From positions 1-64,000 of the forward strand of contig CALWKF010000001.1 of the NCBI GenBank assembly GCA_944381215.1: a stretch of DNA of 64,000 nucleotides, given 5' to 3'. A program made the position numbers and the translations under genes. Positions 24,453-63,825 of this stretch are shown piece by piece (positions within the stretch are counted from its first letter, which is position 1; each line of letters opens with the position of its first letter). The notes beneath the pieces were generated by a model. The model did no database searches. It worked only from the letters and a program-made list of their open reading frames with translations, and had not been told where the DNA came from. Origin of the DNA: an uncultured Clostridia bacterium (GTDB lineage: Bacteria > Bacillota > Clostridia > Christensenellales > UBA1242).

Positions 24453-24528
24453 GGATGATTAGCTCAGTTGGTAGAGCAACTGACTCTTAATCAGTGGGTC
24501 TAGGGTTCGAGTCCCTAATCATCCACCA
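24453..24528 (+). tRNA. tRNA-Lys (CUU)
   Basis: Acceptor GGATGAT/ATCATCC, D arm GCTC/GAGC, anticodon arm ACTGA/TCAGT around the loop CTCTTAA (anticodon CTT), T arm TAGGG-TTCGAGT-CCCTA, and CCA encoded. Its 3' end from the T arm on, together with the terminator, is duplicated 148 bases downstream. Confidence 0.95.
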
Positions 24529-24534
24529 ATATGA

Positions 24535-24560
24535 GAGCGGAGTTTATGCTCCGTTTTTTT
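24535..24560 (+). terminator. Terminator after tRNA-Lys
   Basis: CGGAG (24538-24542) pairs with CTCCG (24549-24553), followed by seven T residues. Confidence 0.8.
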
Positions 24561-24708
24561 GTTACAAGTGTGAAGTCCAAGGGACTCGAACGGGCACGCC
24601 CGAAAAAGTCCCCAGTGGGGAGTTTTTAGTGCCCCGGCATGAAAGTGAAACGGCGTGAGTCCCTAATCATCCACCAAAATGAGAATGGAGCGTTTGCTCC
24701 GTTTTTTT
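24561..24708 (+). repeat. tRNA-Lys-associated element with a second tRNA 3' end and terminator
   Basis: This stretch begins just after the tRNA terminator. It contains a minus-strand copy of a T-arm core (GGACTCGAAC near 24589), hairpin-forming GC-rich DNA (AAAGTCCCC/GGGGAGTTTTT), and then an exact 21-base copy of the tRNA-Lys 3' end (24657-24677, matching 24509-24529). A second terminator follows (GGAGC/GCTCC at 24687-24700 plus T run). The copy has no 5' half, so it cannot make a tRNA. It may be the remnant of an element that inserts at tRNA 3' ends. No coding sequence is inside. Confidence 0.75.
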
Positions 24709-24753
24709 GTTTAATTTAACACCTTTTATAATTTTACAATTGGGGTTTCTAGT

Positions 24754-29885: not shown

Positions 29886-32803
<2,918 letters not shown>

Positions 32804-32871
32804 GATTGGGAAAAAATCGAATGATTGTTCCCACACGATTAGCTATTGTTAAAAAATTCTGTGATATTGTG

Positions 32872-32900
32872 TTGACAAAGTTAAATAAATTTGATATATT
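32872..32900 (+). promoter_or_regulatory. Promoter between 23S and 5S genes
   Basis: TTGACA (32872-32877), exactly 17 bases, TATATT (32895-32900), with TG at 32892-32893. It could drive the 5S gene separately from the 23S transcript. Confidence 0.6.
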
Positions 32901-32934
32901 AGTTATACAGTTGTGAAGTTCACACTGAGCCATT

Positions 32935-33051
32935 TCCGGTGATTATAGCGAAGGGGTCCCACCTGTTCTCATTCCGAACACAGCAGTTAAGCCCTTCTGC
33001 GCCGAGGATACTTGGCGGGTAGCCGCCTGGGAAATTAGGACGTTGCCGGAT
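32935..33051 (+). rRNA. rrf: 5S ribosomal RNA
   Basis: About 117 bases. The terminal stem TCCGG.../...CCGGA closes the molecule. The conserved segments GGTCCCACCTG, CATTCCGAACAC and AGTTAAGC are present. It follows the 23S gene by about 130 bases and is followed by a terminator. Confidence 0.95.
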
Positions 33052-62734: not shown

Positions 62735-62785
62735 TGGTCATCCTGAGCCTCGACCCTCGAAGCCTTTAGACGAAGGATCTCATTC
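62735..62785 (+). repeat. Dispersed CAT(C/T)CTG(A/G)GC...GAAGGATCTCAT repeat, copy 1
   Basis: GTCATCCTGAGCCTCGACCC, then AGCCT...AGACGAAGGATCTCAT. A second copy lies at 63012-63060 and a fragment (GCATCCTGAGCC) near 62885. The repeat is GC-richer than its surroundings. The 62786-63010 stretch between has no gene; it is GC-rich to about 62930, then AT-rich. Confidence 0.6.
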
Positions 62786-63011: not shown

Positions 63012-63060
63012 TGTCATTCTGGGCCTCGACCCGCGTTAGCCTAAGACGAAGGATCTCATC
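63012..63060 (+). repeat. Dispersed repeat, copy 2
   Basis: TGTCATTCTGGGCCTCGACC...AGCCTAAGACGAAGGATCTCAT, closely matching copy 1 at 62735. Confidence 0.6.
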
Positions 63061-63094
63061 CGCTTATAAAATTACTGGACCAGCTCGTTGTTGT

Positions 63095-63151
63095 ACAAAA
63101 CAAAAGAGCACGCCAAACCGCGTACTCATTTTGGTGGGAAGCAATGGACTC
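63095..63151 (-). repeat. tRNA-Ile 3' fragment with terminator (most distal copy)
   Basis: 63132-63151 is an exact 20-base copy of the tRNA-Ile 3' end (minus strand), followed by a near-identical copy of its terminator (63095-63131; compare 63575-63612). The T loop onward (5' side) diverges, so no tRNA can be made. Confidence 0.75.
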
Positions 63152-63258
63152 TTGTAGAGGCTCACTATCAGCTTAATACACATTTTAGCATACTGTTATA
63201 CGGCTCAATCACTTGCTTTTACTAACGTTTAGTTCGCTCTAGCTTCGAGCCCCGCTGT

Positions 63259-63279
63259 AATGGACTCGAACCATCGATC
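63259..63279 (-). repeat. tRNA-Ile T-arm fragment
   Basis: A copy of the T-arm segment (ATGGACTCGAACCATCGA on the plus strand) without acceptor end. Confidence 0.65.
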
Positions 63280-63398
63280 TTTAAAGTGAGACTCGCAAAC
63301 GACCATGCACACATTTTGGGTTAGGTGAGGGTTGAGGTATTCGTACTTGCTTTTGCTTTTTTATTGCTCGTTCTCGCTTTAGGTCTACCACTCATACC

Positions 63399-63466
63399 AA
63401 CAAAAAAACAAGCACAAACACCGTACTTGTCTTGGTGGGAAGCAATGGACTCGAACCATCGACCTC
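63399..63466 (-). repeat. tRNA-Ile 3' fragment with variant terminator (proximal copy)
   Basis: 63433-63466 is identical to the last 34 bases of tRNA-Ile (63613-63646), exactly 180 bases away. A diverged terminator (ACAAGTACGG.../...GTGCTTG) follows on the minus strand. The anticodon half is missing. The bases between these fragments hold no gene. Confidence 0.75.
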
Positions 63467-63574
63467 TTGGGGAGGCTCGCGATTGGCTTATCACTTATAC
63501 AGGCAACACATAGCCCGACTTATCACTTTATCGTGCTTTAATGTCGCTCGCTCCCGCGTTCGGTCTAGCACTTG

Positions 63575-63612
63575 TACAAAACAAAAGAGCACGCCGAACT
63601 GCGCACTCATTT
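63575..63612 (-). terminator. Terminator after tRNA-Ile
   Basis: On the minus strand GAGTGCGC pairs with GCGTGCTC (two G-U pairs), followed by TTTTGTTTTG. Confidence 0.75.
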
Positions 63613-63689
63613 TGGTGGGAAGCAATGGACTCGAACCATCGACCTCACGCTTATCAGGCGTGTGCTCTAACCAGCTGAGCTAGCTTCCC
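63613..63689 (-). tRNA. tRNA-Ile (GAU)
   Basis: Acceptor GGGAAGC/GCTTCCC, D arm GCTC/GAGC, anticodon stem CACGC/GCGTG around CTGATAA (anticodon GAT), T arm ATGG-TTCGAGT-CCAT, CCA encoded, 77 bases. It follows tRNA-Ala in the same unit. Confidence 0.95.
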
Positions 63690-63748: not shown

Positions 63749-63825
63749 TGGTGGAGATAAAGAGATTCGAACTCTTGACCCCCTGCTTGCAAGGCAGGTG
63801 CTCTAGCCAGCTGAGCTATACCCCC
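63749..63825 (-). tRNA. tRNA-Ala (UGC)
   Basis: Acceptor GGGGGTA/TATCTCC with the G3-U70 pair that marks alanine tRNAs, anticodon stem CTGC/GCAG around the loop with anticodon TGC, T arm AGAG-TTCGAAT-CTCT, CCA encoded, 77 bases. A hairpin (TGGGACTA/TAGTCCCA) lies between it and tRNA-Ile and may guide processing. Confidence 0.95.

What the first reader, a model, noticed from the sequence alone, without database searches (positions are those of the whole stretch)
63095..63646. Array of tRNA-Ile 3' fragments downstream of the real tRNA-Ile
Four partial copies follow the gene on its own strand: 34 identical bases at 63433, a T-arm piece at 63259, 20 bases at 63132, and a near-identical terminator at 63095. 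This repeats the tRNA-Lys pattern (3' end plus terminator) at a second locus, so a general process acts on tRNA ends in this genome.
Basis: partly seen in the sequence, partly recalled or inferred. Interest (0 to 1): 0.7.

Follow-up and report, generated by a model that had tools for sequence, protein, structure and literature searches.

The report
Gene-less guided elements behind tRNA genes
The repeated tRNA-Ile ends are scars of a family of tiny gene-less DNA elements that sit just behind tRNA genes in a group of gut Clostridia and carry a short stretch complementary to the particular tRNA they sit at, so their bodies appear able to spread from tRNA to tRNA while the targeting stretch changes to fit each one.

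Summary
The array is three head-to-tail units behind tRNA-Ile(gat), each made of a tRNA 3' part, a terminator and a short structured insert. It is not a single tandem duplication: 11 of 42 tRNAs in this genome have such a 3' copy (control 1%).

The inserts are gene-less and fold. The class at tRNA-Lys and many other tRNAs has: a guide antisense to the local tRNA (positions 53-62), a 3-way-junction body with strong covariation, then a second copy of tRNA 57-76. It occurs in 62/147 genomes of the family and 52/297 of the order; apart from weak hits, the copies examined lie at tRNA or tmRNA genes or their displaced fragments. Guides match their own tRNA (344/360 variable positions; shuffled 272±5), yet bodies cluster by genome (84% identity), not by tRNA (74%). 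The body therefore moves between tRNAs and the guide is re-matched. The Ile units are a sister class with the same layout and their own covarying pairs.

Best reading: a new kind of miniature integrative element recombining at the T loop or variable loop. The enzyme is unknown, and strand chemistry (RNA or single-stranded DNA) is unresolved.

The parts
63613..63689 (-). tRNA-Ile(gat), intact; the target gene
   Evidence: ARAGORN and Rfam
63573..63612 (-). Terminator of unit 1, directly after CCA (GAGTGCGC..GCGTGCTCTTTTGTTTTG)
   Evidence: sequence; repeated at 63091-63131
63468..63566 (-). Unit 1 insert: AGACC guide arm, covarying P2 arm, variable apical part, GCGAGCCTC right arm (Ile-type, class B)
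   Evidence: same fold in 9 Ile-type units of 6 congeneric genomes
63433..63467 (-). First displaced 3' copy of tRNA-Ile (variable loop to CCA)
   Evidence: 34/34 identical to the gene
63281..63432 (-). Unit 2: terminator (GTACGGTGTTTGTGCTTGTTTTTTTG), AGACC guide arm and insert (class B)
63259..63280 (-). Second displaced copy, T arm only (degenerate)
   Evidence: 21/22
63152..63258 (-). Unit 3 insert, degenerate; right arm GTGAGCCTC kept
63132..63151 (-). Third displaced copy: tRNA-Ile 57-76, junction at the T loop
   Evidence: 20/20
63091..63131 (-). Terminator behind the last copy; similarity to the array ends here
   Evidence: 95% to 63572-63612
24453..24528 (+). tRNA-Lys(ctt), intact; second target gene in the window
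24529..24580 (+). Terminator and ACAAGTG spacer of the Lys unit
24581..24591 (+). Guide GGGACTCGAAC = complement of tRNA-Lys GTTC|GAGTCCC (positions 53-63)
24592..24656 (+). Class-A body: P2, P3, P4 junction, right end ACGGCGT; model R1 matches 24579-24646 with 95.2 bits
24657..24676 (+). Displaced copy of tRNA-Lys 57-76 (GAGTCCC..CCA), 3' partner of the guide in P1
   Evidence: 20/20
24677..24713 (+). Downstream terminator (AATGGAGCGTTTGCTCCGTTTTTTTG)

Best explanation
The Ile array is a stack of units of a miniature, gene-less integrative element that uses tRNA and tmRNA genes as attachment sites. One unit is [tRNA 3' part - terminator - spacer - guide - folded body]. It enters at the T loop between positions 56 and 57 (class A, most tRNAs) or mainly at the variable loop (class B, at tRNA-Ile). 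The incoming 3' part restores the tRNA, and the old 3' end and its terminator are pushed downstream; repeating this gives the array. The sense strand folds so that the guide pairs with the tRNA-derived sequence at the right junction, rebuilding the target sequence as a stem next to a conserved G-A-rich junction. I propose that an enzyme supplied in trans recognises this stem plus junction and exchanges one strand with the matching tRNA loop, as integron attC or CTX-phage hairpin sites do. SHOWN: anatomy, covarying fold, tRNA linkage, guide matched to the local tRNA, body shared between tRNAs within a genome, tandem units, copy-number differences between species. INFERRED: movement by recombination rather than another copying route, single-stranded DNA as substrate, the enzyme, and how the guide is re-matched (templated repair of the P1 hairpin or selection).
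For: Fold: 11 of 16 P2/P3 pairs have two-sided changes, 99.6% of cells paired, 0/500 shuffles reach this, slid controls 30-58%. Guide/right-copy helix: covariation score 0.435 against 0.169 (sd 0.022), 32 two-sided cells, all four pair types at one position. The last body base and the R of GGCRTG are linked: 43 G-C, 7 A-T, none mixed. Guide matches its own tRNA 344/360 at positions 57-62, shuffled 272.5 (sd 5.1), maximum 295 in 10,000, and falls off at 63 and 64. Targets include tmRNA. Bodies cluster by genome (0.836 against 0.745, permutation p<2e-4), not by tRNA (0.741, p=0.76). Identical or near-identical tandem units at Thr, Arg and Gly tRNAs. The first terminator often differs from the last, with homology ending at CCA, as after integration. 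Ile-type units: 0 to 3 per genome in one genus, common fold with an R-Y pair covarying 9/9.
Against: No recombinase is linked: units carry no gene, and the five Phage_integrase hits in G000 have no special tie to them. A unit carrying tRNA-X 57-76 that entered tRNA-Y would spoil tRNA-Y, so spread between tRNAs needs the 3' part and guide to be replaced or repaired, which plain integration does not explain. No excised circle or same-species empty site was available. Conserved unpaired bases and sheared G-A motifs would also suit a functional RNA. Folding energies of single units are only modestly below shuffles (z -0.5 to -4.7).
Confidence: 0.5

Rival explanations
1. A structured RNA encoded behind tRNA genes acts on the upstream tRNA (the guide can pair with its T arm) or on processing. 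It is kept by selection and homogenised within a genome by gene conversion.
For: RNA-like conserved junction bases and tandem G-A pairs; non-Watson-Crick pairs on the sense strand are G-T 24 against A-C 6; the fixed place, 36-81 nt behind most tRNAs that carry a first copy, suits a cis role.
Against: A terminator stands between tRNA and element in the loci read. Presence at a given tRNA is patchy within a genus. The target range is nearly all isoacceptors plus tmRNA. Gene conversion alone cannot create the second copy of tRNA 57-76 at a new tRNA.
Confidence: 0.2
2. Replication or template-switch errors at the T-arm palindrome: tandem duplication of tRNA 3' end plus terminator, with hairpin-templated correction keeping guide and copy complementary.
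For: The guide nearly always matches the local tRNA, as templated correction would produce; truncated last units are common; Lys and Ile terminators are clearly duplicated.
Against: It does not explain a conserved body with 27 two-sided compensatory cells shared between unrelated tRNAs of one genome, nor its spread over an order.
Confidence: 0.15
3. Ordinary attachment-site scars of decayed phages or ICEs that target tRNA genes, accreted in tandem.
For: T-loop-to-CCA direct repeats are the classical mark of tRNA-targeting islands (PMC4383910); such islands occur here at Glu, Ser and Leu tRNAs.
Against: Units are ~150-250 bp, gene-less, share one covarying body over many tRNAs and carry a tRNA-specific inverted guide; real islands lie between tRNA and element, with a different core.
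Confidence: 0.08
4. A retroelement or IS200/REPIN-type element mobilised by a reverse transcriptase or Y1 transposase.
For: Hairpin body, guide complementary to target (as in IS608) and REPIN-like size.
Against: RVT_1 is absent from 10 of 12 element-bearing genomes. Y1_Tnp is absent from element-bearing G001, G003, G004, G006, G007, G008, G009 and broken in G000.
Confidence: 0.07

Closest known systems
tRNA/tmRNA-integrating genomic islands (Islander type, T-loop crossover)
   Same: Target tRNA and tmRNA genes; direct repeat from T loop to CCA; tRNA restored and old fragment displaced; tandem arrays
   Different: ~150-250 bp, no integrase or any gene; antisense guide matched to each tRNA; conserved folded body shared between different tRNAs
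Integron cassettes / attC sites (and CTX-phage hairpin attP)
   Same: Imperfect inverted core boxes that fold a single strand; cassette-like tandem arrays; structure conserved with a variable terminal stem
   Different: No RYYYAAC/GTTRRRY cores (seen by eye); target is the tRNA T loop; no gene in the cassette; the stem sequence follows the target
REPINs / IS200-IS605 ends
   Same: Miniature hairpin elements with compensatory changes; guide complementary to a cleavage site
   Different: Confined to tRNA 3' ends; Y1 transposase absent from most carriers; target-specific guide; displaced 20-nt tRNA copy
MITEs
   Same: Short, gene-less, multicopy, inverted ends
   Different: Inverted ends are copies of the target tRNA, not of a transposon; ~20-nt tRNA duplication
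Group I intron internal guide / bridge RNA
   Same: Guide complementary to sequence on both sides of the junction
   Different: ~75-nt body, no match to any Rfam family

Membership tests
tRNA-integrating genomic island | Displaced 3' tRNA fragment in direct orientation behind an intact tRNA | tested here: met
tRNA-integrating genomic island | Integrase gene between tRNA and fragment | tested here: not met
   Units in the Lys, Thr, Gly, Asp and Ile loci are too short to hold a gene; gene-bearing cases are separate insertions
Integron cassette / attC | Folded single-strand site with structure-conserving changes | tested here: met
Integron cassette / attC | RYYYAAC ... GTTRRRY core boxes | tested here: not met
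   Ends are ..CGAAC and GGAGY^RANYCC, judged by eye
Integron cassette / attC | IntI-type integrase in the genome | not tested
   Five Phage_integrase genes found, not typed as IntI or otherwise
REPIN / IS200-IS605 | Y1 (PF01797) transposase or RAYT in carrier genomes | tested here: not met
Retroelement | Reverse transcriptase (PF00078) in carrier genomes | tested here: not met
   absent in 10 of 12 carriers
Known Rfam RNA family | Match to any of 4227 families | tested here: not met
   only tRNA and unrelated hits
Class-A element (this work, model R1) | Match of the Ile array itself to R1 | tested here: not met
   No R1 match at 63091-63612; Ile units are filed as sister class B by shared layout and R-Y/G-A motif
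Single tandem duplication | Copies explained by one duplication, no arrays elsewhere | tested here: not met
Any site-specific element | Excised circle or empty site in the same species | not testable with these tools
   One genome per species and no reads

The most novel reading that the evidence does not exclude
A categorically new mobile-element principle: a gene-less nucleic acid whose antisense guide is rewritten from each new target on insertion (by templated repair or copying), so that one body can colonise any tRNA or tmRNA T loop without having to match it beforehand.
Probability: 0.35. Interest if true: 0.92.

Novelty: new variant of a known kind. Interest (0 to 1): 0.8.

Why it matters
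tRNA genes are the classical landing sites of phages and islands, and how elements switch from one tRNA to another is poorly understood. Here a tiny element has spread over nearly all tRNA isoacceptors and tmRNA in a large group of gut Clostridia while its guide stays complementary to whichever tRNA it sits at. That gives a natural data set for target switching, a new structured nucleic-acid family absent from Rfam, and possibly a compact guided integration system. It also explains tRNA-fragment arrays that would otherwise be annotated as junk or pseudo-tRNAs.

Tried and rejected
(1) Single tandem duplication: rejected. (2) Scars of conventional islands: disfavoured, because islands are present but separate. 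(3) The element as right end of autonomous gene-bearing islands: orphan copies without a nearby tRNA were followed up; G071 (serine recombinase island), G003 (single large gene), G139 (serine recombinase island) and G006 (tyrosine integrase) are best read as independent insertions between tRNA and element. (4) Y1/REPIN and reverse-transcriptase mobilisation: enzyme families absent from most carriers. (5) Viral or plasmid origin: no match in viral contigs, phages or plasmids. (6) Bradyrhizobium and Tranquillimonas pattern hits and weak R1 hits in 3-Mb genomes of one family and one other genome (L210-L212, L225, L228) are not at tRNAs and were dropped as chance or other repeats. (7) Known ribozyme or riboswitch: no Rfam match. 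(8) Papers: six full-text searches found no description of such elements; the library lacks most subscription papers.

Full report
The repeated unit is longer than a tRNA fragment. It runs from the tRNA 3' end through the terminator and ~50 nt beyond (75-79% over 114-122 nt). The tRNA-Lys locus (24453-24713) shows the same order.

HOW GENERAL IT IS IN THIS GENOME. Forty-two tRNA genes were found and their flanks fetched. Eleven have a >=16/20 copy of their own positions 57-76 within 700 nt downstream, against 1.1% of mismatched pairs, and nine also have the inverted T arm at >=9/10, against 0.9%. Between tRNA and copy, six tRNAs (Lys, Thr-cgt, Gly-ccc, Gly-tcc, Asp, Arg-tct) carry a shared ~70-nt body that BLAST or the covariance model finds only behind tRNAs; at Arg-tct the right-hand copy is lost.

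ANATOMY OF THE COMMON CLASS (A). Reading along the tRNA strand: intact tRNA with CCA; terminator; short spacer; guide; body; junction; tRNA 57-76 again; original terminator. The guide is antisense to tRNA 53-62 (GTTC|RANYCC) and the junction is exactly 56^57. The body is P2 (GGGCAC/GTGCCC and variants), P3, the conserved strip CGGCRTGATAG, a variable stem P4 and the right end CGGAGY. Covariation is very strong: 11 of 16 P2/P3 pairs change on both sides, 99.6% of cells pair, no shuffle reaches this. The guide and the right-hand copy form helix P1 with all four Watson-Crick types at one position. The last body base and the R of CGGCR are linked without exception (43 G-C, 7 A-T). Non-Watson-Crick pairs in P2/P3 are 24 G-T against 6 A-C, so the sense strand is the one that folds.

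DISTRIBUTION. Named records carrying the body pattern are uncultured Clostridia, one labelled Christensenella. With model R1 the element is in 62 of 147 genomes of the family (27 of 42 genera), in 52 of 297 genomes of the order at E<=1e-4 (a minority are weak hits not at tRNAs), and in a few class relatives, two of which were read and sit at a tRNA or tRNA 3' end. No match in viral contigs, phages or plasmids. Targets include Leu, Ser, Arg, Gly, Asp, Glu, Lys, Thr, Phe, His, Pro, Asn, Ala and tmRNA. Copies without a nearby tRNA mostly lie at contig ends or next to a tRNA fragment displaced by a separate island.

THE KEY RESULT. Guides match their own tRNA at 344 of 360 positions (57-62) over 60 elements; shuffling tRNAs gives 272.5±5.1, maximum 295 in 10,000. 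With duplicates removed (46 pairs) it is 260 of 276 against 202±5. Matching falls off at 63 and 64, so the match is a 10-nt guide, not a long tRNA copy. Bodies behave the other way: 84% identity within a genome at different tRNAs, 74% at the same tRNA in different genomes, which equals the background (75%); permutation p<2e-4 for genome and 0.76 for tRNA. In one genome the bodies at His and Arg tRNAs are identical although their guides differ; in another, those at Leu-caa and Leu-tag are identical. So bodies travel between tRNAs and guides follow the target. Orthologous loci are not independent, which is why the tests used permutations and de-duplicated pairs. The right-end search pattern imposes part of the T-loop consensus, so the guide test was made against the tRNA gene itself.

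THE ILE ARRAY. Model R1 does not match it. The Ile loci of congeners show what it is: units AGTG..AGACC - arm - CGAGC - variable - GCGAG - arm - tRNA copy, present 3 times here, 0 to 3 times in relatives (none in G008 and G009). Nine units fold alike: P1 is GACC with GGTC of the variable loop (or, in one unit of G001, a T-loop guide of ~10 bp), P2 differs in sequence from unit to unit but still pairs, and R-CGAGC..GCGAG-Y gives a tandem G-A motif with R-Y covarying 9 of 9 (3 G-C, 6 A-T). The P2 covariation was judged from folds and not counted formally. I call this class B, a sister of class A by layout; common descent is not shown. In this genome the junction is near the variable loop for units 1 and 2 and at the T loop for the last copy. 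Unit 3 is decayed.

MECHANISM. The T-loop-to-CCA repeat, the restored tRNA and the displaced terminator are what tRNA-targeting integration leaves (PMC4383910). The folded strand with the target sequence rebuilt in a stem recalls integron attC and hairpin attP sites (established knowledge). I therefore propose a trans-acting recombinase that uses the folded sense strand. This is inference. The unsolved step is target switching: the 3' part and the guide must both become those of the new tRNA. Templated repair of the P1 hairpin would fix the guide; a staggered or replicative insertion duplicating positions 57-76 would supply the copy. Y1 transposases and reverse transcriptases are absent from most carriers, which argues against REPIN-like and retro routes as far as those Pfam models reach.

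RIVALS. A cis- or trans-acting RNA remains possible because the junction looks RNA-like; slippage plus hairpin correction explains guide matching but not the shared body; decayed islands explain the direct repeat but neither guide nor body.

NOVELTY. No Rfam family and no paper in six searches of a partial library. It works like a miniature integrative element, but fails a defining feature of each known family tested. I rate it a new variant of miniature mobile DNA; the guide-rewriting reading would be categorically new.

Noticed in passing
window 62737-62783 and 63013-63059: Dispersed ~47-nt repeat (GTCATYCTGRGCCTCGACCC..GACGAAGGATCTCAT), also seen in several other intergenic flanks of this genome.
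   Followed up: no
L044, L056 (this genome, Leu-aag and Met-cat), L087, L088, L133, L138 (congeners): Another mobile-looking element directly after CCA: CAAGCAAGGAGAACGAGAAAACTTTTGCGAGAT..TGGACTTGTTCTTTTTTT, at different tRNAs in different species.
   Followed up: no
L041 3181-3400, L070, L171, L174: Elements that look like the class-A body in reverse orientation at the T loop; in L171 the 5' half of tRNA-Lys is duplicated upstream instead of the 3' half.
   Followed up: partly
L058 ~2220-2360 and L098: Large hairpin insert (TTTTGTGTATCTTTTTCGCAAATACTTCG..CTAAACAAAAT) behind the Gly-ccc element in two species.
   Followed up: no
L200 and L202: Large serine recombinase islands inserted at the 3' ends of tRNA-Ser and tRNA-Glu, between tRNA and the small element.
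   Followed up: partly
L203: Cas9-like gene with a Cas1-like and a Cas2-like gene downstream of tRNA-Ser element copies in G170 (named from the sequences, not searched).
   Followed up: no
L210, L211, L212, L225: Dispersed non-tRNA repeats with hairpin CTGTCCAGTGGACAG in 3-Mb genomes of another family of the order, weakly resembling the body.
   Followed up: no
window 29886-33051 and 63749-63825: 23S-5S rRNA pair and a separate tRNA-Ala/tRNA-Ile pair with no 16S gene found in the window.
   Followed up: no
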